Origin: Candidatus Tumulicola sp. | Lineage (GTDB): Bacteria; Vulcanimicrobiota; Vulcanimicrobiia; Vulcanimicrobiales; Vulcanimicrobiaceae | Direction: 5' to 3' | Length of the DNA stretch: 64,000 nt | Assembly: GCA_036490475.1 (NCBI GenBank) | Contig: DASXDT010000006.1 | Span: 372,001-436,000, forward strand | Part shown: piece after piece, positions 1 through 51,958 of the stretch | Position numbering within the stretch: the stretch's first letter is position 1 | How the letters are laid out: each line of letters opens with the position of its first letter | Position numbers and translations under genes: made by a program | Notes under the pieces: model-generated | What the model was told of the DNA's origin: nothing | Database searches by the model: none | Seen by the model: the letters and a program-made list of their open reading frames with translations, nothing else

Positions 1-26
1 CTGTTTTTATCGAGGAAAATACTCAC
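1..26 (-). CDS. sucD: Succinyl-CoA synthetase alpha subunit, N-terminus only
   Basis: Only the first eight codons lie inside the window. From a GTG at 26 they read MSIFLDKN, which matches the usual SucD opening (MSILVDKN-like). The GTG overlaps the sucC stop as GTGA, so the two subunits are translationally coupled, as is normal for this heterotetrameric TCA-cycle enzyme. The rest of the gene lies beyond the left edge. Confidence 0.8.
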
Positions 27-1186
27 GCCGCGGCCTCCACGGCGCGCTTAGCGCCTTCGTCCATCGTTTCGACCGGCGTCATCCCGGCCTCGGCCAAAAT
101 CCGCCGGCCTTCTTCTTCGTTATTACCGGTCAGGCGAATGACCAGCGGGATTTTACGCGAGCTGGTCGTCGCCATTGCGTCCACGATACCCCGCGCGACT
201 TCGTCGCCACGCGTGATTCCACCAAAGATGTTGATGAAGAACGACTTGGCGCCGGTGTTGTTGACGACCAGCTCGTAACATTTGCGCACGCGTTCGGCGT
301 TAGCGCCGCCGCCGACATCGAGAAAGTTCGCGACTTTGCCGCCGGCGAACGCGACCGCGTCCATCGTAGCCATCGCCAAACCCGCGCCGTTGGCCATCGT
401 ACCGACGGTTCCGTCGAAGCGTAGGAAGTTGCGGATTCCTAAGCCGGCGCTGCTCGCCAATCGCTCGTCCTCATCGAGCGGTAACGCCTCTTGCCACTTC
501 GCGAATTCGGGATGGCGAAACAGCGCATCGTCATCGAGTTCGACTTTAGCATCGGAGGCGACGACCTTACCGTCTTTGGTGAGCGCGAGCGGATTGATTT
601 CGACCAGTTTAGCGCCGTACTCAAAAAAAAGTTCGTACAGCGCTCCGACAATCGCCGGTAGTTGCTTACGATAACCTGGATCGAGCTGCGCGTCGAACGC
701 CAACTGCCGCCCGATGAAGGGTGAGTAGCCGATGGCCGTATCGATGTAGGCTTTCGCGATCGACTCGGGGTGATGCTCGGACACTTCCTCGATATCCATG
801 CCGCCGAAACGGCTGACCATGATCACGGGTCTTTTCTGAGCCCGGTCGATCGTAATCGCGCAGTAGGCTTCTTTTTCGATCGGAAGTTTCTCTTCGACCA
901 GCAACGATTTGATCGGTTCGCCGTTGGGATTCTGCCTGTTCGGTGGCATCGGCGTCGCCAAGATGTTTTGTGCGACGTGCCGGCCTTCGTCGGCGCCGGT
1001 TGCGAATTGAATTTTGCCGGCCTTCCCGCGACCGCCCATCAAGACTTGCGCTTTGACGACCCACTCGCCGGCCTGTTCTTTCAAAAAGTCCGCGACGTGC
1101 TGCGCGGTTGGGGCGTGGCTGTTGCGCGGAACGGGAATCCCGGCCCGGCGAAACAGCTCCTTGCCCTGATACTCCATGAGGTTCAT
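23..1186 (-). CDS. sucC: Succinyl-CoA synthetase (ADP-forming) beta subunit
   Basis: This is the nucleotide-binding subunit of succinyl-CoA ligase, which makes ATP or GTP from succinyl-CoA in the TCA cycle. The protein has 387 residues, the usual family length. It opens with MNLMEYQGKELF and has an ATP-grasp domain with the glycine-rich loop VLMGGRGKAGKI at about residues 48-59. A CoA-ligase domain follows, containing NGAGLAMATMD, FLDVGGGA and FINIFGGITRGDEVA. The ATG overlaps the stop of the upstream acyl-CoA dehydrogenase gene as ATGA, and sucD follows with a GTGA overlap. The coupling places sucCD at the end of a fatty- or amino-acid oxidation operon, suggesting the acetyl-CoA made there feeds directly into the TCA cycle. 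Confidence 0.97.
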   Translation of the reverse strand: MNLMEYQGKELFRRAGIPVPRNSHAPTAQHVADFLKEQAGEWVVKAQVLMGGRGKAGKIQFATGADEGRHVAQNILATPMPPNRQNPNGEPIKSLLVEEKLPIEKEAYCAITIDRAQKRPVIMVSRFGGMDIEEVSEHHPESIAKAYIDTAIGYSPFIGRQLAFDAQLDPGYRKQLPAIVGALYELFFEYGAKLVEINPLALTKDGKVVASDAKVELDDDALFRHPEFAKWQEALPLDEDERLASSAGLGIRNFLRFDGTVGTMANGAGLAMATMDAVAFAGGKVANFLDVGGGANAERVRKCYELVVNNTGAKSFFINIFGGITRGDEVARGIVDAMATTSSRKIPLVIRLTGNNEEEGRRILAEAGMTPVETMDEGAKRAVEAAA

Positions 1187-2340
1187 TCAAATTTTCCCAA
1201 TAGCGAACGAGCGATGATGATCTGTTGAATTTCGGACGTGCCTTCGTAGATCTCGGTGACCTTGGCATCGCGATAGTGCCGTTCGACAGCGAACTCGGTC
1301 GTGTAACCGTAACCGCCGTGAATTTGCAGCGCTTCCGCGGCATGCTTTCGCGCGGCGGTCGACGCAAACAGTTTGGCTTTTGACGCTTCAATCGTGAACG
1401 GACGGCCCGCGTCGGCCAGCGCGGCTGCGCGATACAGTAGAAGTCGCGCGGCGTCGAGATCCATCGCCATCTGCGCGATTTTGAACGATACGCCTTCGAA
1501 CGCACCGATCGGTTTGCCGAATGCAATTCGCTCCTTTGCGAACTGCACGGATTCGTCCAAACACGCTGCGAGAATGCCGACGGCTTGCGCGGTGATACCG
1601 ATCCGACCGGAGGTCAACGCCGTCATCGCACCACCGAAACCGTCGCCTTCGCTGCCGAGCAGCGCGTCGCCGGGAATCTTCGCGTCTTCGAACGCGAGAT
1701 CGCACGTGTTGCTCGTGCGAATTCCAAGCTTATCGGTAACGCGCTCGACGACGATGCCGGTGGTACCGCGCGGTATTAAGAACGCGCTGACGCCCTTAGG
1801 GCCGGGGCCGCCGGTGCGGAACATGCCCATTACGACGTCGCAGTAGCTGCCGTTGGTACACCATTGCTTGCGACCGTTCAACACGTATCCGTCATCTTGA
1901 CGGCGAGCGGTCGAGCGAAGCGAAGCCGCGTCCGAACCGGCATCGGATTCCGTCAGCGCAAATCCGGCAATCGTGTCGCCGGTCGCCAACTGCGGCAACC
2001 AACGTTCTTTTTGTGCGTCGCTACCGAGCCGCGAAATGGCGGCGCAAATCATGGAATGCACCGACACCGTAACGGCCGTGCCGGCGTCCACTCGAGCCAG
2101 CTCTTCGATCGCGAGTGCGTACGATACGTAATCGGCGCCGACCCCGCCATACGCTTCGGGAACGATGATGCCCATGATGCCGGCGTCGGTTAACTTTTTG
2201 TATAACTCGCGCGGAAACGTATGCTCGCGATCCCACTGCGCGATGTGCGGAGCGATTTCGCGTTGCGCGATCTCGGCTGCCAGCCCGCCGATAGCGCGTT
2301 GGTCGGCGGTCAGTTCGAACGCGATCGACGTCGAATCCAT
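1183..2340 (-). CDS. Short-chain acyl-CoA dehydrogenase
   Basis: An FAD-dependent acyl-CoA dehydrogenase of the short-chain/butyryl type (385 residues) that introduces the 2,3-double bond into acyl-CoA and passes electrons to an electron-transfer flavoprotein. Family signatures are FALTESDAGSDAAS, the middle beta domain with KQWCTNGSYCDVV, and the C-terminal helical bundle ending in EALQIHGGYGYT and VTEIYEGTSEIQQ. The Glu of YEGT is at the catalytic-base position of short-chain enzymes. The reading frame is open to 2415, but the ATG at 2340 is preferred. It begins the usual N-terminus ([14 protein letters not shown]) and overlaps the TAA of the hbd gene as TAATG. Position next to hbd and thiolase suggests a C4 substrate. 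Whether it works as a dehydrogenase or as a crotonyl-CoA reductase cannot be told from the sequence. Confidence 0.93.
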   Translation of the reverse strand: MDSTSIAFELTADQRAIGGLAAEIAQREIAPHIAQWDREHTFPRELYKKLTDAGIMGIIVPEAYGGVGADYVSYALAIEELARVDAGTAVTVSVHSMICAAISRLGSDAQKERWLPQLATGDTIAGFALTESDAGSDAASLRSTARRQDDGYVLNGRKQWCTNGSYCDVVMGMFRTGGPGPKGVSAFLIPRGTTGIVVERVTDKLGIRTSNTCDLAFEDAKIPGDALLGSEGDGFGGAMTALTSGRIGITAQAVGILAACLDESVQFAKERIAFGKPIGAFEGVSFKIAQMAMDLDAARLLLYRAAALADAGRPFTIEASKAKLFASTAARKHAAEALQIHGGYGYTTEFAVERHYRDAKVTEIYEGTSEIQQIIIARSLLGKFE

Positions 2341-3176
2341 TAATACGTGTAGAAGCCGCGGCCGCTCTTGCGTCCCAGCCAACCGGCGGCGACATATTGC
2401 CGCAGTAGCGGACACGGCCGGTATTTGCTATCGCCGAACCCGTCGTGCAGCACTTCCATAATCGCCAAACACGTGTCGAGCCCGATGAAATCGGCCAGCG
2501 TCAGCGGCCCCATCGGATGATTCATGCCAAGCTTCATAACGGTGTCGATGGCTTCGGGCGTCGCGACGCCTTCGTATACCGTGTAGATCGCTTCGTTGAT
2601 CATCGGCATCAACACGCGGTTCGAGACGAATCCCGGGAAGTCGCGCACTTCGACCGGCGTCTTGCCCATCTGTGCGGCTAGATCGCGCGTAAACTCGAAC
2701 GTCTCTTGCGACGTCGCGATGCCCCGGATAATTTCGACCAGCTGCATCACCGGCACCGGATTCATGAAGTGCATGCCGATCACGCGCTCCGGGCGCGCGG
2801 TAACTGCGGCTATTTCGGTGATCGAAATCGACGACGTATTACTCGCTAATCGCGCGTTTACCGAACACTGTGCGTCGAGCAGGCGAAAGAGTTCGAGCTT
2901 GATCTCCAAACGCTCGGTCGCCGCCTCGATCGCCAGATCGACGTCGAAGGCATCGATCGCCGGCGCGGGCGCGATTCGCCCCAGGACGGCGTTGCGGTCG
3001 GCTGCCGTTAGCCGGCCTTTCTCGACCGATCGATCGAGGTTCTTTTCGATGCCGGCCAATCCGCGTTCGATATATTCGGGGCTACGGTCGTTGAGCAACA
3101 CGTCGTGGCCGCTCGTCGCAGCGACCTGCGCGATGCCGGCGCCCATTTGGCCGGCACCGATAACCGCTATCTTCAT
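2340..3176 (-). CDS. hbd: 3-hydroxybutyryl-CoA dehydrogenase
   Basis: An NAD(P)-dependent oxidoreductase interconverting 3-hydroxybutyryl-CoA and acetoacetyl-CoA; 278 residues, standard for monofunctional Hbd/PaaH. The Rossmann motif GAGQMGAG is at residues 7-14. [15 protein letters not shown] carries the catalytic His and the conserved MNPVP turn. [15 protein letters not shown] and [12 protein letters not shown] mark the C-terminal dimerisation domain, which closes with [11 protein letters not shown]. The open frame extends upstream to 3515 through low-complexity Arg-rich antisense sequence. The ATG at 3176, six bases from the thiolase stop, gives the family N-terminus [12 protein letters not shown]. 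Thiolase, Hbd and acyl-CoA dehydrogenase in this order supply the C4 half of a beta-oxidation or butyryl-CoA pathway. No crotonase gene is present here. Confidence 0.95.
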
Positions 3177-3181
3177 TCCGC

Positions 3182-4525
3182 CTACTCGACTTTGATCAAC
3201 AAAGCGTCGCCTTGTCCACCGCCCGAACAAATCGACGCAATTCCGTATCCGCCGCCGCGTTTGCGCAACTGATTGATCAGGGTTCCGACGATGCGCGTTC
3301 CGGACGCGCCGATCGGATGGCCCATCGCGACCGCACCGCCGAAGCGGTTGATGTTGATCTCGTCCAGGCCGAGATGGCGAGCCGATGTGATTGCGACGGC
3401 CGAAAACGCCTCGTTGATTTCCCACACAGCGATGTCGTCGCGCGTGAGGCCGGCGCGATCGAGCATTTTCTGCGCGGCCATCGCGGGCGTGATGCAGATG
3501 TACGGCGAGTCCCACGCCACGTCGGCATGATCCAACACCGTAGCGAGCACTTCGCGTCCGTGCTGGGCTGCGTAACCCGCATCGGCCAGGATCATCGCTG
3601 CCGCGCCGTCGTTGACGCCCGGCGCGTTGGCTGCCGTAATCGTACCGCCCGGATCGAGCGGGCGCAGTTTTGCCATCGCTTCCGCGCTGGCATCCGTGCG
3701 TACCGATTCATCGCGGTCGACCGTCGTCGAGGCTTCATTGCCGGTGACGAACGGAGCGTATTTTTCGTAATCTAGCGTGAACTGTTCGGATGGTTGATGA
3801 TCCCACATACGATTCGAACCGCCTCCGACCGAGGCCGGGACGCGAACCTGGCCGCGACGCGGGAGCGCGTCGACCACAACTTTTCCGCGCGACTTGGTCG
3901 CGACGCGAACGGGAACGATTTCGGCATCGAAGTGACCCGCGGCGTGCGTTTCGGCCGCGCGTTGATGGCTTGCAAGCGCGAAACGATCTTGATCTTCGCG
4001 TGATAAACCGAGTTCGGTAGCGACTAGATTTCCTTGCGACGACATCGTCATCGGAAAATATTGATCCCACAGTCCGTCGTAGACCATCGCGTCGACCAGC
4101 TCGCCGTTACCGAAGCGGTATCCGAACCGTGCGCTGCGCAGCAGATACGGCGCGTTCGACATCGACTCCATGCCGCCGGCGGCGACGACCGTACGCGCTC
4201 CGGCGTTGATCGACCGCATCGCGTACGCGATCGCGACGAGACCCGACGCGCAAACTTTGTTGACCGTTTCGGCGGTTACGGTTTTCGCAAGGCCGGATTT
4301 AAAGATCACTTGGCGAGCCGGATTTTGTCCCGCACCGGCTTGCAGCACTTGACCGAAAATGGCGTGGTCGACGTCGCTCGGATCGATGCCCGCGCGCTCG
4401 ATGGCTGCCGCCAACGCGACCGCGCCGAGCGTCGTGGCCTCGAGCGGAGCGAGACCGCCGCCGAGCTTACCGAATGGCGTGCGAGCGGTCGAGAGGACGA
4501 CCGCTTTGGATGACGTGGAATTCAT
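3182..4525 (-). CDS. Acetyl-CoA acetyltransferase (thiolase) with an extra loop
   Basis: A type II thiolase that splits acetoacetyl-CoA into two acetyl-CoA or condenses them. The acyl-carrying Cys92 lies in NKVCASGL. The NEAF motif is at about 371, His403 in [12 protein letters not shown], and the general-acid/base Cys433 in SICSGGGQG, so all catalytic elements are intact. The protein is 447 residues, whereas the family is usually about 390-395. The excess is one in-frame block at about residues 219-271, between the EIVPV strand and the conserved LRPL segment, i.e. in the loop domain that shapes the CoA and acyl pocket. The insert is rich in Gly, Ser, Asp and aromatic residues. Directly upstream of hbd with a five-base gap. 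Confidence 0.94.
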
Positions 4526-8015: not shown

Positions 8016-8774
8016 TTATGCGAATAACTGGCTGCCGGAGCGGCGAAGACGCTCGGCCAACGTAACTGCGATGAATGCTGCGACTTCGCTCGGCAGCGTA
8101 CCGCGACCGAATCCGGCGTCGTAGCCGAGCTCGGCTGCGAGCAACCCGGTAACGCGCGGACCGCCGCAAACCAACACGACACGGTCGCGTAGCCCTTCGG
8201 CCTCCAGCAGTTCGACCAACTCGGTGAAGTTTTTGACGTCGCTGCCTTTCTGGGTGACGATCTGCGACGCGAGGATCGCGTCGACGTCCTTCTCTTTGGT
8301 GAACCGGACCAGATCTTCTGCGGCGACTTGGCTACCCAGATTGAACGCCTCGAACCAATGATACCGCTCGAGGCCATAATCGCCCTTGTAGCCTTTCATG
8401 TTGAGAATGGCATCGATGCCGACGGTGTGCGCGTCGGTACCGATGCACGCGCCGGCCACGCGAATCTTGCGGCCGACGTTCTCGGCCACGAACGCGTCGA
8501 CTTCTTCCATCGACATAGCATGTGCGCGCGCCGGCGACGCTTTCACGTTGTCGACGTCGACGCTGTGCGGCGTGCTCGCATACAAGACGAAAAACGAAAA
8601 GCCCGTAGCGATCTTCCGGCCTTCAACGACTTGCACGTCGACCAGACCCATGTTTACAGCCAGTTGGCGCGCGGCTTCGTCGGCGGCTTCGTTCCACTCG
8701 ATCGGCAACGTAAACGACAGTTGCATCTTGCCGTCGTTCATCGTATCGCCGTATGGTTTCACGCCCTGCGTCAT
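8016..8774 (-). CDS. kamE: Lysine 5,6-aminomutase beta subunit (B12-binding)
   Basis: The cobalamin-carrying subunit of the adenosylcobalamin- and PLP-dependent aminomutase that moves the terminal amino group of beta-lysine or D-lysine to C5. It has 252 residues. The base-off/His-on motif DxHxxG is seen as D114-A-H116-TV-G119. Lys127 lies 11 residues after the ligand His, the same spacing as the PLP-binding Lys144 after His133 in the characterised clostridial enzyme. CGGPRVTGLLA and GFGRGTLPSEVAAF complete the Rossmann-like B12 domain. The ATG overlaps the kamD stop as ATGA, consistent with a 1:1 complex. Confidence 0.95.
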   Translation of the reverse strand: MTQGVKPYGDTMNDGKMQLSFTLPIEWNEAADEAARQLAVNMGLVDVQVVEGRKIATGFSFFVLYASTPHSVDVDNVKASPARAHAMSMEEVDAFVAENVGRKIRVAGACIGTDAHTVGIDAILNMKGYKGDYGLERYHWFEAFNLGSQVAAEDLVRFTKEKDVDAILASQIVTQKGSDVKNFTELVELLEAEGLRDRVVLVCGGPRVTGLLAAELGYDAGFGRGTLPSEVAAFIAVTLAERLRRSGSQLFA

Positions 8775-10327
8775 GCCGGCACCGTCAGTTCGGCCCGTAA
8801 TGCGTCTTCGAACGGGTTGAAATATCCGGGTGCGCGTGCGAACACGCCGTCGGCCCCGCGACCGCCGTCGGGCGAGCGTTTGACGTCGGCAAAAAACGCG
8901 CCCTCGATCGCCTCCATCAAACCGATCGACGCAACGCGCTCCAATAACACCTCACAACCGGCCAGAACCGACGCGGCGCGCTTTTCGATCGTGCCGCCCG
9001 GCTTGACGACGATCTCGTCGCCGAAATGGCGTGCGGTATTCATGACGTAACGCGCGTTATCGATCGACAGAGCCCGGTCGCCGAGAAACGGGGTGTGGAT
9101 CGCTTCGGTGAGCATTCCGCACAAGTGGATCGTTTGACCCGTCATGACCGACGTTAGGTTGAAAAGCGCGTCGATGAGATGGCCCTTGAAGACGTCGCCG
9201 GTCATGTGTTTTGTCGGCGGCATATATTTGAGCGGCGCGTCCGGAAAGACTTGTCGCGTCAGTTGCGCTTGCGCCACTTGAAAAAGAAATCCGTCCTCTA
9301 AGCCCGGATCGATTTCGTAGGCGTCGCCCAGCCCGATCTGCCGGTCGGGCATACCGGCACGATGCGCGAACTCCTCGTTAATAAATTGCGAAGCGAGGAC
9401 GGCCGGTGCCTGATCCACCGCGTCGGCGGTGGTGAGATAATTATCCTCGCCGGTGTTGATGATGATGCCGGAGTAGGCGTTCAGCGTGCGGCTGAAATGT
9501 TGGTCGACGAACGTGCGCTTCATGTTGATGTCGCGGAACAAGATGCCGTACATCGAGTCGTTCAGCAACATGTCGAGACGCTCGACGGCCGCCAGCGCCG
9601 CGATCTCGGGCATGCACAGGCCGCTCGCATAATTCGTGAGCATCACGTATCGCCCGGCGCGCTCCGACGCTTCATCGAGGGCCGCGCGCATGATGCGGAA
9701 ATTCTCTTGCGTTGCGTACGTGCCGCCGAATCCTTCGGTCGTCGCGCCGTACGGCACGAAGTCGAGCAGCGATTGTCCGGTCGAACGGATGACCGCGATG
9801 ATTTGCGCGCCGGCTTCGACCGCGGCGGCGGCCGCAGTACGATCTTCGTAGATATTGCCGCTAGCCACAATCACGTACAGGAGCGGCGGCGGCAGTTGCT
9901 TCAAGCGCTCGAGCCGTTCGCTGCGTTCGGCCCGCCGTTCGCGTAGGCGGCGCATACCCGCCTCGACGTGCGGAGCCAGCGCCGCTCGGGCCGCCTCATC
10001 CGGCGTGCCCCCGAATTGCGCGAGCCCCAGCTCACCGGCCGCGATCGCCGCGCCTGCCTGCGCCGGATTCAAGCCGGTTTCGGCCACCATTTTGCCGATC
10101 GCCAACGCGATGCCGCGGGCCAGCACCGGCGTGGCGAGGGACTCGACGACAACGTTCGGCACCGGAATCTCGTCGCGTCCGACGCCGTCCACCCCCAGCA
10201 GCCGCAGAACCGCACGCTCGACGGACACGGTTGAGTGTGCGGCGATAAAGGCTTCGACGGGCGCGACGATCGAGCCCGACAGTGCGCGGCAGCGGTCGAC
10301 GGAGGCCCGGTCGATGCAGAGTTCCAT
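8771..10327 (-). CDS. kamD: Lysine 5,6-aminomutase alpha subunit (TIM barrel)
   Basis: The large catalytic subunit of lysine 5,6-aminomutase (518 residues, normal for KamD). Recognisable blocks are VIVASGNIYEDRTAA, AVIRSTGQSLLDFVPYG, EGFGGTYATQENFRIMR, RDINMKRTFVDQHFSR, NTGEDNYLTTADA and KYMPPTKHMTGD. The last two lie in the substrate/PLP-facing barrel. kamE follows with an ATGA overlap. No lysine 2,3-aminomutase (kamA), kdd or kce is visible in this window. A promoter (TTGAGC, 17 bases, TAAGAT) ends nine bases before the ATG. Confidence 0.95.
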   Translation of the reverse strand: MELCIDRASVDRCRALSGSIVAPVEAFIAAHSTVSVERAVLRLLGVDGVGRDEIPVPNVVVESLATPVLARGIALAIGKMVAETGLNPAQAGAAIAAGELGLAQFGGTPDEAARAALAPHVEAGMRRLRERRAERSERLERLKQLPPPLLYVIVASGNIYEDRTAAAAAVEAGAQIIAVIRSTGQSLLDFVPYGATTEGFGGTYATQENFRIMRAALDEASERAGRYVMLTNYASGLCMPEIAALAAVERLDMLLNDSMYGILFRDINMKRTFVDQHFSRTLNAYSGIIINTGEDNYLTTADAVDQAPAVLASQFINEEFAHRAGMPDRQIGLGDAYEIDPGLEDGFLFQVAQAQLTRQVFPDAPLKYMPPTKHMTGDVFKGHLIDALFNLTSVMTGQTIHLCGMLTEAIHTPFLGDRALSIDNARYVMNTARHFGDEIVVKPGGTIEKRAASVLAGCEVLLERVASIGLMEAIEGAFFADVKRSPDGGRGADGVFARAPGYFNPFEDALRAELTVPA

Positions 10328-50402: not shown

Positions 50403-51587
50403 ATGGTGCTGTCGATCGTCGGCCTCGGTCCCGGAGAGTCGCAGTTTCTGAGCGTTGGCGCACTCGAAGCGCTGCGCGCGGCCGCGTGCGCGGCGGTAAT
50501 CGGTGCGCCCGCCGACCTGCGCGCTTATCTTCGCTCCAACGGTGTAGACCTCGACGGTGATTTGATCCTCGATGAAGCCGGTCTGGCGTCGGGCGCAAGC
50601 GCGGCCGTCGCGCAGTTCGCTCATCGCATTTCGGGACTCGACGGCGTTGCGTTGGGCGTACTCGGCCATCCGCTGACCGATTTTGCCGGCCTGCCGGAAC
50701 TGGTGCGCGAGCTGGAAGCTCGCGGAGATTCCGTCGCGATCGTGTCGGGCATGCCGCGCGCAACGCTCTCCGCCTCGATGTCGATCCCGCTCGTGCCGCT
50801 GCCCGCACCGTCCGCGCATTACAGTTGGGACGATCTGGTCGAAGTGATGGCGCGTCTGCGAGCCGGATGCCCGTGGGATCGCGAGCAAACCCACCGCAGT
50901 TTGGTACCGTACTTGATCGAAGAAACGTACGAAGTCGTCGAAGCGATCGAAAACGAAGACAATGAGGGCCTGTGCGAAGAGTTGGGCGATTTGCTGTTGC
51001 AGATCGTTTTCCACGCACAGCTCGGTGCCGAAACCGCGACGTTTACCGTTGCCGACGTCATCGACGCGTTGGCCAACAAAATGGTACGCCGCCACCCGCA
51101 CGTATTCGGCGACGCCGAAATTCGTGACGTCGACGCACAGTGGGTCAACTGGGAGAAGCTGAAAGCGCTCGAGGCTACCGGTAAGAAGCGCCGTAGCCGC
51201 TTGGACGGCATTCCGCGTGCGCTCGGCGCGCTGCAACGCGGACAACGCATGCAAGAGAAAGCGTCGCGCGTCGGGTTCGATTGGAAAAGCGTCGACGGCG
51301 TGCTCGACAAGCTCGACGAAGAACGGCGCGAACTTGCCGTCGCTCGCGAAGAGGCGAACCCCGACGGCGTCCGCGAAGAGTTGGGCGACGTGCTGTTTAC
51401 GCTCGTCAATCTCGCGCGCTCGCTCGGCGTGGACGCCGAAGCCGCCATGCGCGAGGCAAACGAAAAGTTCTATCGTCGCTTCCGCTTCATGGAAGAGGAT
51501 GCCGCACGCAAAGGCCGGCCGCTGGCCGAGATGTCGATCGAGGAGCTCGAAGAGTTATGGCAGCAAGCCAAGACGCAAGCAGCATAA
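50403..51587 (+). CDS. mazG: MazG nucleotide pyrophosphohydrolase with shortened N-terminal methylase-like domain
   Basis: A 394-residue protein. Residues about 145-394 are a standard double MazG unit: [34 protein letters not shown] and [18 protein letters not shown] with the metal-binding ExxED pattern, then [20 protein letters not shown] and the second [15 protein letters not shown]. It hydrolyses NTPs to NMP and PPi, clearing abnormal nucleotides. Residues 1-140 begin [17 protein letters not shown], as in tetrapyrrole-methylase domains of YabN-type proteins. Here that domain is about 80 residues short and lacks the SAM-binding segments, so it is probably non-catalytic. ATG 50403 lies after the terminator. 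Confidence 0.9.
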
Positions 51588-51958
51588 TCCGTTTGCGCAT
51601 GAGTGCGCACGACGCACACTACGGTGGGAATTTGGTCGACGGCGCCCGTATGCTGTCGTTGTTCGGCGACGTCGCAACGGAATTGTTAATCCGCATGGAC
51701 GGCGATGAAGGCCTGTTCGTCGCCTACGATCGGGTGGAGTTCCTCGCGCCGGTGTTCGCCGGGGACTACGTGGAAGCCGAAGGCCGGATCGTTTCGGTCG
51801 GCCGCACGTCGCGCACGATGGAGTTTGAAGCCCGCAAAGTGATCGCCGCTCGCCCCGATATCGACGATAGCGCGGCCGACGTCCTAAATCCACCGGTCGT
51901 CGTGTGCCGGGCTTCGGGGACGTGCGTCACGCCGGCCGCCAAGAAGCGCATTCCGTAA
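51557..51958 (+). CDS. kal: 3-aminobutyryl-CoA ammonia-lyase
   Basis: A 133-residue hotdog-fold protein. [20 protein letters not shown], then [50 protein letters not shown] and [14 protein letters not shown] match the Kal family as I remember it. That enzyme eliminates ammonia from 3-aminobutyryl-CoA to give crotonyl-CoA in lysine fermentation. A generic hotdog thioesterase is the alternative. ATG 51557 overlaps the mazG end by 31 bases and has GAAGAG just upstream; ATG 51599 is possible but would remove the conserved first strand. kamD and kamE, earlier steps of the same pathway, lie at 8016-10327. Its coupling to mazG is unexplained. Confidence 0.8.

What the first reader, a model, noticed from the sequence alone, without database searches (positions are those of the whole stretch)
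8016..10327. Lysine-type amine catabolism split across the window: kamDE at 8-10 kb and kal at 51.6 kb
KamD and KamE are complete, with the B12 motif (Asp114, His116, Gly119) and the PLP lysine at the expected spacing. A short hotdog protein at 51557-51958 looks like 3-aminobutyryl-CoA ammonia-lyase. Hbd, thiolase and an acyl-CoA dehydrogenase lie downstream of kamDE on the same strand, followed by sucCD. In the known lysine fermentation pathway these fill the amine-migration, deamination and C4-CoA steps. Missing here are kamA, kdd, kce and a crotonase. Coupling to sucCD rather than to butyrate kinase suggests complete oxidation by a respiring organism, which differs from the classical clostridial fermentation.
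Basis: partly seen in the sequence, partly recalled or inferred. Interest (0 to 1): 0.7.

Follow-up and report, generated by a model that had tools for sequence, protein, structure and literature searches.

The report
Dispersed lysine breakdown pathway in Eremiobacterota
A lysine-breakdown pathway known from oxygen-avoiding fermenters is encoded, complete but scattered over four places in the genome and with an unusual first enzyme, in a family of soil bacteria (Eremiobacterota) whose one cultured member grows only with oxygen.

Summary
KamD, KamE and the 133-aa hotdog protein all pass curated model cut-offs for lysine 5,6-aminomutase and 3-aminobutyryl-CoA ammonia-lyase (Kal). The genes reported missing are elsewhere in the same genome: lrp-kdd-kamA at contig C6 803 kb, kamB-kamC-kce-oppBC at C5 764 kb, and also crotonases, a 3-oxoacid CoA-transferase and four haem-copper oxidase subunits. 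The host is Candidatus Eremiobacterota (WPS-2, Vulcanimicrobiota), in the family of Vulcanimicrobium alpinum. In other phyla these genes usually form one cluster. Here the four-way split is family-wide; a sister family keeps lrp-kdd-kamA-kamB-kamC-kce-oppBC together. KamA belongs to a separate branch without the C-terminal zinc motif but with the lysine pocket and PLP lysine. It also persists as lrp-kamA where kdd, kamDE, kal and kce are all absent, so it probably has a second role. Best reading: oxidative lysine catabolism to acetyl-CoA in aerobes. Against it: V. alpinum did not grow on lysine alone, although it grew on no single substrate tested. Gene content is shown; flux and KamA activity are inferred. 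New variant of a known pathway.

The parts
8016..8774 (-). KamE, beta subunit of lysine (beta-lysine) 5,6-aminomutase; B12 motif D114/H116/G119, PLP lysine K127
   Evidence: NF052385 349.9 bits, cut-off 280; OAM_dimer and B12-binding domains; alignment to 1XRS_B
8771..10327 (-). KamD, alpha subunit of lysine 5,6-aminomutase
   Evidence: NF052384 777.2 bits, cut-off 600; PF09043 771 bits; 8T0V/9Q1A/1XRS alpha chains at E about 1e-184
51557..51958 (+). Kal, 3-aminobutyryl-CoA ammonia-lyase (hotdog fold); start overlaps the end of mazG
   Evidence: NF052388 197.8 bits, cut-off 160; best PDB relative beta-alanyl-CoA:ammonia lyase; alignment; mazG-kal overlap or abutment in most relatives
50403..51587 (+). 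MazG/YabN-type protein, conserved upstream neighbour of kal (genomic context, not a pathway enzyme)
   Evidence: NF007113/TIGR00444 above cut-off; same order prsA-mazG-kal in the sister family
3182..4525 (-). Thiolase (acetyl-CoA C-acetyl/acyltransferase), candidate for acetoacetyl-CoA cleavage
   Evidence: TIGR01930 397.6 bits, cut-off 240.6
2340..3176 (-). Hbd, 3-hydroxybutyryl-CoA dehydrogenase (start taken from the domain hit; the open frame runs to 3515)
   Evidence: NF004474 444.7 bits, cut-off 408, residues 114-391 of the open frame
1183..2322 (-). Acyl-CoA dehydrogenase of unassigned chain length (start approximate; open frame runs to 2415)
   Evidence: All three acyl-CoA dehydrogenase Pfam domains; no equivalog cut-off reached
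23..1186 (-). SucC, succinyl-CoA ligase beta subunit; sucD follows just outside the window
   Evidence: NF001913 433.2 bits, cut-off 370; sucD-like gene in L360

Best explanation
kamDE and kal are two of four scattered loci of a complete lysine pathway of the clostridial type, in a family of aerobic Eremiobacterota. Lysine or lysine-bearing peptides enter (OppABC genes flank two of the loci). KamA (radical SAM, PLP) makes beta-lysine. KamDE (B12, PLP), kept active by KamB/KamC, makes 3,5-diaminohexanoate. Kdd oxidises it to 5-amino-3-oxohexanoate. Kce, with acetyl-CoA, gives 3-aminobutyryl-CoA and acetoacetate. Kal releases ammonia to give crotonyl-CoA. Here, instead of butyrate being excreted, crotonase, Hbd and thiolase take crotonyl-CoA to acetyl-CoA, and a SCOT-type CoA-transferase plus thiolase does the same for acetoacetate, feeding the TCA cycle and respiration. 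Shown: the genes, their family assignments, the conserved gene order, and the joint absence of the core loci. Inferred: enzyme activities, flux direction, use of the SCOT/crotonase end instead of butyrate, and lysine as the substrate of this KamA branch.
For: Family assignments. Solved relatives for every signature enzyme except KamB/KamC. KamA keeps the CxxxCxxC cluster, R134, D293, D330 and the PLP lysine K337 of 2A5H; its predicted fold is closest to 2A5H (E 5e-31); it is the only KamA-like gene found in the genome. kdd and kamA are adjacent wherever both were recovered. In f1+f2 the core genes co-occur despite being unlinked: of 60 genomes at least 90% complete, 52 have kamD, kdd, kal and kce and 3 have none (0.002 expected if independent; permutation p 5e-5); all f3 genomes lack all four. 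In 65 of 101 kdd loci from other phyla, at least two further pathway genes lie in the same stretch of at most 8 kb. The sister family keeps one cluster. SCOT, crotonase and COX1 are in the genome. Obligately aerobic cultured family member (PMC9758169).
Against: V. alpinum WC8-2, identified as G104 by its exact chromosome length of 3,508,363 bp, carries the loci but did not grow on L-lysine alone (PMC9758169); it used none of the single substrates tested, only yeast extract. KamA fails the lysine 2,3-aminomutase equivalog (TIGR03820 240 of 525 bits) and passes only the KamA superfamily model; it persists in genomes without the pathway. KamB, KamC and Kce score slightly to clearly below their equivalog cut-offs. 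Crotonase, Hbd, thiolase and SCOT are generic and not linked to the kam loci. Butyrate-forming genes were not searched for. The permutation test ignores shared ancestry, so its p-value is a guide only. No expression or enzyme data.
Confidence: 0.75

Rival explanations
1. The same complete pathway runs as a true fermentation, or as an electron sink, under low oxygen: crotonyl-CoA is reduced by the acyl-CoA dehydrogenase and butyrate or a storage polymer is formed.
For: An acyl-CoA dehydrogenase lies in the kamDE neighbourhood and is conserved there. A SCOT-type transferase could also accept butyryl-CoA. The pathway elsewhere is fermentative (PMC3149608).
Against: V. alpinum showed no growth under fermentative or anaerobic conditions (PMC9758169). 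The genome has four COX1-type oxidase subunits. Crotonase, Hbd and thiolase are present, so no butyrate step is needed.
Confidence: 0.12
2. KamA of this branch does not serve the pathway as lysine 2,3-aminomutase (other substrate or other duty), and the rest of the pathway consumes beta-lysine or D-lysine taken up from outside.
For: KamA is on a separate, fully supported branch from KamA of clustered pathways, misses the TIGR03820 cut-off, and is kept as lrp-kamA in f3 genomes and in G038, which lack the pathway. Its nearest plasmid relatives lie near polyketide, aminotransferase or tRNA-ligase-like genes.
Against: kdd and kamA are adjacent in every f1/f2 locus in which both were recovered. 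The lysine-binding aspartates, the carboxylate arginine and the PLP lysine are conserved. No second KamA was found in the genome.
Confidence: 0.1
3. The scattered genes are relics, or kamDE and kal were recruited singly to other tasks (for example near the nucleotide-sugar genes) and form no pathway.
For: kamDE sits between polysaccharide and GDP-sugar genes, and kal overlaps mazG.
Against: Full-length frames with curated-cut-off scores; joint presence or absence of the unlinked loci across 103 genomes; conservation across two families.
Confidence: 0.03

Closest known systems
Lysine fermentation pathway (KamA-KamDE-Kdd-Kce-Kal) of Clostridium, Fusobacterium and Bacteroidota (described in PMC3149608)
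   Same: All signature enzymes are present with family-level matches, including the MutS-like reactivase KamC and KamB.
   Different: Four loci instead of one cluster; KamA from another branch of the family; end steps consistent with oxidation; the cultured relative is an obligate aerobe.
Cloacimonadota variant with 3-aminobutyryl-CoA aminotransferase Kat in place of Kal (PMC3149608)
   Same: A variant of the same route; the PLoS ONE paper also reports low gene clustering in that genome.
   Different: Eremiobacterota have a genuine Kal; the altered step is KamA instead.
Lysine 2,3-aminomutase of Clostridium subterminale (2A5H)
   Same: Closest fold and sequence among solved structures; catalytic and lysine-binding residues conserved.
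   Different: The eremiobacterial enzyme is 32-38% identical to pathway KamA of other phyla, has no C-terminal CxCxxC zinc motif and has a threonine in place of the cysteine after GVND. Some other pathway KamAs, such as those of Cloacimonadota and Thermosipho, also lack the motif.
AblA/AblB beta-lysine acetylation (osmolyte synthesis)
   Same: Also begins with a KamA-family enzyme.
   Different: Neighbours here are kdd, lrp and an oligopeptide-binding protein; no acetyltransferase was noted beside kamA.

Membership tests
Lysine 5,6-aminomutase (KamDE) | alpha and beta subunits above the curated equivalog cut-offs | tested here: met
   777.2 of 600 and 349.9 of 280 bits
Lysine 5,6-aminomutase (KamDE) | DxHxxG cobalamin motif and PLP lysine in the beta subunit | tested here: met
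   D114, H116, G119 and K127 align with D131, H133, G136 and K144 of 1XRS_B
3-aminobutyryl-CoA ammonia-lyase (Kal) | Equivalog score above cut-off and better than generic thioesterases | tested here: met
   197.8 of 160 bits; 4HBT 39.6; best PDB relative is an ammonia lyase
L-erythro-3,5-diaminohexanoate dehydrogenase (Kdd) | Equivalog score above cut-off | tested here: met
   240.7 of 200 bits; 7DL3 at 1.7e-89
[quoted passage not shown]
   381.9 of 382 bits; much better than the other acetoacetate-cleavage families; closest solved structure is the Kce 2Y7D
Lysine 2,3-aminomutase (AblA/KamA equivalog TIGR03820) | Equivalog score above cut-off | tested here: not met
   240.1 of 525.4 bits; only the KamA superfamily TIGR00238 is passed, 227.9 of 199.2
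Lysine 2,3-aminomutase (function) | CxxxCxxC, carboxylate arginine, the two lysine-binding aspartates, PLP lysine in PGGGGK | tested here: met
Lysine 2,3-aminomutase (function) | Conversion of lysine to beta-lysine | not testable with these tools
   Needs an enzyme assay
KamB/KamC reactivase | Equivalog scores above cut-off | tested here: inconclusive
   KamC 288.7 of 300 in this genome and above 300 in 55 of 117 class genomes; KamB 156.9 of 210
Lysine fermentation pathway | All signature enzymes in one genome | tested here: met
Lysine fermentation pathway | Genes clustered | tested here: not met
   Four loci on two contigs
Lysine fermentation pathway | Butyrate-forming end (butyryl-CoA:acetoacetate CoA-transferase or butyrate kinase) | not tested
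   A SCOT-type transferase of unknown specificity was found; butyrate kinase was not searched for

The most novel reading that the evidence does not exclude
Eremiobacteria run an oxidative, aerobic version of the lysine fermentation route in which the canonical KamA is replaced by a zinc-motif-free KamA branch that predates, or outlives, the rest of the pathway in the class, is controlled by its own Lrp-type regulator, and has a second, unknown use of beta-lysine.
Probability: 0.45. Interest if true: 0.6.

Novelty: new variant of a known kind. Interest (0 to 1): 0.5.

Why it matters
The route through B12-dependent and radical-SAM aminomutases is regarded as a hallmark of anaerobic amino-acid fermenters. 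Finding it conserved through most genomes of two families whose cultured member is an obligate aerobe would assign a carbon and nitrogen source to an abundant, nearly uncultured soil phylum. It shows that an operon can be taken apart while its parts still come and go together. It also singles out a KamA branch, possibly suited to oxygen, that a cultured type strain could be used to test.

Tried and rejected
(1) I first thought the KamA PLP lysine was displaced, having placed it in the SKG motif from memory. The 2A5H alignment numbering shows that K337 is the lysine of PGGGGK, which is conserved, so this was dropped. (2) A cobalamin riboswitch at the kam loci: no Rfam hit in the window, L035 or L037 except a tRNA. 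(3) A fused Kal-Kce enzyme (NF052389) in the genome: not found; Kal is separate, and the 402-aa BKACE paralogue scores only 75 bits to that model. (4) V. alpinum first seemed to lack KamC, because there is none directly beside kce. KamC is about 10 kb away at 875 kb and scores 328.7 bits. (6) The viral contig collection was not used; it has no bearing here.

Full report
WHAT IS IN THE WINDOW. KamE (8016-8774, minus) and KamD (8771-10327, minus) pass the curated lysine 5,6-aminomutase cut-offs with room (349.9 of 280 and 777.2 of 600 bits). The hotdog protein at 51557-51958 is a 3-aminobutyryl-CoA ammonia-lyase by model (197.8 bits, cut-off 160; Pfam 4HBT only 39.6), by nearest solved relative (beta-alanyl-CoA:ammonia lyase 97.8 bits; best thioesterase-type hit 27.5) and by direct alignment with Kal proteins from clustered pathways (58-78% identity). 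Thiolase, Hbd, acyl-CoA dehydrogenase and sucC follow kamDE on the same strand, but four unrelated genes intervene, and sucD lies just outside the window.

THE MISSING GENES ARE IN THE GENOME. The window is C6:372001-436000 of a 3.32-Mb, 96% complete genome. BKACE and LAM_C searches led to two further loci. At C6 about 802.7-805.6 kb stands an Lrp/AsnC-family regulator gene, then kdd (240.7 of 200 bits) and kamA (TIGR00238 227.9 of 199.2; TIGR03820 240 of 525), with a divergent oligopeptide-binding protein gene. At C5 about 762-767.5 kb stand kamB (156.9 of 210), kamC (288.7 of 300), kce (381.9 of 382) and oppB-oppC. Six crotonase-fold hits, an adjacent CoA-transferase pair over the 3-oxoacid CoA-transferase cut-offs, a second hbd beside a crotonase on C4, and four COX1-type subunits complete an oxidative end.

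WHICH ORGANISM. A degenerate Kdd motif scan of GTDB genomes returned records titled Candidatus Eremiobacterota / WPS-2. Four contigs match same-class genome handles by exact length: PLJL01000004.1 = G105:C4 (2,370,584), PMUE01000367 = G020:C239, JAFAXS010000045 = G029:C131, JANWKW010000079 = G072:C79. G104 is a single contig of 3,508,363 bases, exactly the chromosome length reported for Vulcanimicrobium alpinum WC8-2 (PMC9758169), and it is in the same family as the window genome. That strain is an obligate aerobe with no anaerobic or fermentative growth. It did not use L-lysine as sole carbon source, but it used no single compound tested, only yeast extract. Its kam loci are all present. Below, f1 is this family, f2 a sister family in the same order, and f3 another order of the same class; the group codes are those of the genome search tool.

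THE DISPERSAL IS REAL AND OLD. Among 101 kdd loci from other phyla, 65 carry at least two further pathway genes besides kamA within the stretch of at most 8 kb that was fetched (many are cut by contig ends), typically in the order kal-kce-kdd-kamA-kamB-kamC-kamD-kamE. None of the 12 eremiobacterial loci does. The kamDE neighbourhood (kamD-kamE-gmd-epimerase-methyltransferase-CDF-thiolase-acyl-CoA dehydrogenase-sucC) is conserved across most genera examined. kal overlaps or abuts mazG in most loci. kamD and kal lie 18-117 kb apart (median 42.5 kb) in the 27 genomes that I tabulated with both on one contig. In the sister family f2, three genomes show a single cluster with lrp, kdd, kamA, a response regulator, kamB, kamC, kce and oppB-oppC, while kal (with mazG) and kamDE are separate (the gene caller did not mark every gene in every copy). 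In f1, which contains the window, that cluster is cut into oppA/lrp-kdd-kamA and RR-mntP-kamB-kamC-kce-oppBC. The two halves thus look like pieces of one ancestral cluster.

THE UNLINKED LOCI ARE INHERITED TOGETHER. Of 60 f1+f2 genomes at least 90% complete, 52 have kamD, kdd, kal and kce, 3 have none, and 5 lack one or two. Joint absence is expected in 0.002 genomes if the losses were independent (permutation p 5e-5, not corrected for shared ancestry). All 14 f3 genomes lack all four. This is the best evidence that the scattered genes act as one pathway.

THE KamA BRANCH. Eremiobacterial KamA is 32-38% identical to pathway KamA of other phyla and falls on the opposite side of a fully supported branch from them (quick tree; several long branches, so deep order is uncertain). 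Catalytic and lysine-binding residues are kept (R134, D293, D330 and K337 of 2A5H), but the C-terminal CxCxxC and the cysteine after GVND are gone. The predicted model (of the 86% identical homologue in L182; pLDDT 78.7, pTM 0.82) is closest to 2A5H. The gene is also present at 67-73% identity in f3 genomes, as an lrp-kamA pair without kdd. It is likewise present in f1 genomes that lack the pathway; in G038 the order oppA-lrp-kamA remains and only kdd is missing. KamA therefore probably has a second duty. Plasmid relatives (45-50%) in rhizobia and one Klebsiella plasmid lie among biosynthetic-looking genes. No other KamA-like gene was found in the window genome. The Kdd proteins of the group form one clade (SH-aLRT 99).

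HOW IT MOST LIKELY WORKS. Established pathway knowledge (PMC3149608): lysine to beta-lysine (KamA), to 3,5-diaminohexanoate (KamDE), to 3-keto-5-aminohexanoate (Kdd), to 3-aminobutyryl-CoA plus acetoacetate (Kce, using acetyl-CoA), to crotonyl-CoA plus ammonia (Kal). With crotonase, Hbd and thiolase on one side and SCOT plus thiolase on the other, one lysine would give a net three acetyl-CoA (inference from stoichiometry). Shown here: genes, families, order, co-inheritance. Inferred: activities, substrate of KamA, direction, the oxidative end.

NOVELTY. The held library (open-licence PMC papers only) gave no paper pairing Eremiobacterota or WPS-2 with this pathway; the searches on Eremiobacterota plus lysine, WPS-2 plus aminomutase, and the kam gene names gave only the V. 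alpinum growth test as relevant to this phylum. I class it as a new variant of a known pathway: a new lifestyle context, a new gene layout and a different KamA branch, but the same chemistry.

Noticed in passing
L338-L344 (f3 genomes) and L347 (G038): lrp-kamA is a conserved pair in genomes without the other signature genes of the lysine pathway, with a conserved membrane-anchored protein of about 180 aa nearby in several; the use of KamA there is unknown.
   Followed up: partly
L337 (Klebsiella pneumoniae plasmid pC240_3), L350 (Streptomyces sp. SAT1 plasmid): A KamA-family gene lies beside, or a few genes from, a 'class I tRNA ligase family' gene in both; in Klebsiella also an MFS transporter and a PLP aminotransferase. 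Looks like a biosynthetic cassette that makes or loads a beta-amino acid.
   Followed up: no
L335, L336, L349 (Rhizobium and Sinorhizobium plasmids): KamA homologues of the zinc-motif-free branch (48-50% identical to the eremiobacterial one), in L335 near a type I polyketide synthase and aminotransferases.
   Followed up: no
L121, L127, L131, L142, L174, L179, L198, L204, L232: Lokiarchaeota contigs carry kdd, in several cases with kamA, kce and kamDE; their Kdd sequences form one clade beside Clostridium and Brevinema.
   Followed up: partly
L143: A gammaproteobacterial MAG (OFTM226) has a compact kdd-kamA-kamD-kamE-kal-kce cluster in which the search found no kamB or kamC; a possible second non-clostridial context.
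   Followed up: no
window 3182-4525: The thiolase is 447 aa, with an insert of about 45 residues (around residues 219-263) relative to acetyl-CoA acetyltransferase models; full-length matches in relatives suggest that the insert is conserved.
   Followed up: no
L036:8931-10139 (C4): A second, divergent 402-aa BKACE protein (188 bits to PF05853) that fits none of the named cleavage-enzyme families.
   Followed up: no
window 50403-51958: kal overlaps or directly follows the end of mazG in nearly all relatives, including the sister family; why a housekeeping nucleotide-pyrophosphatase gene should be coupled to a lysine-pathway lyase is unexplained.
   Followed up: partly
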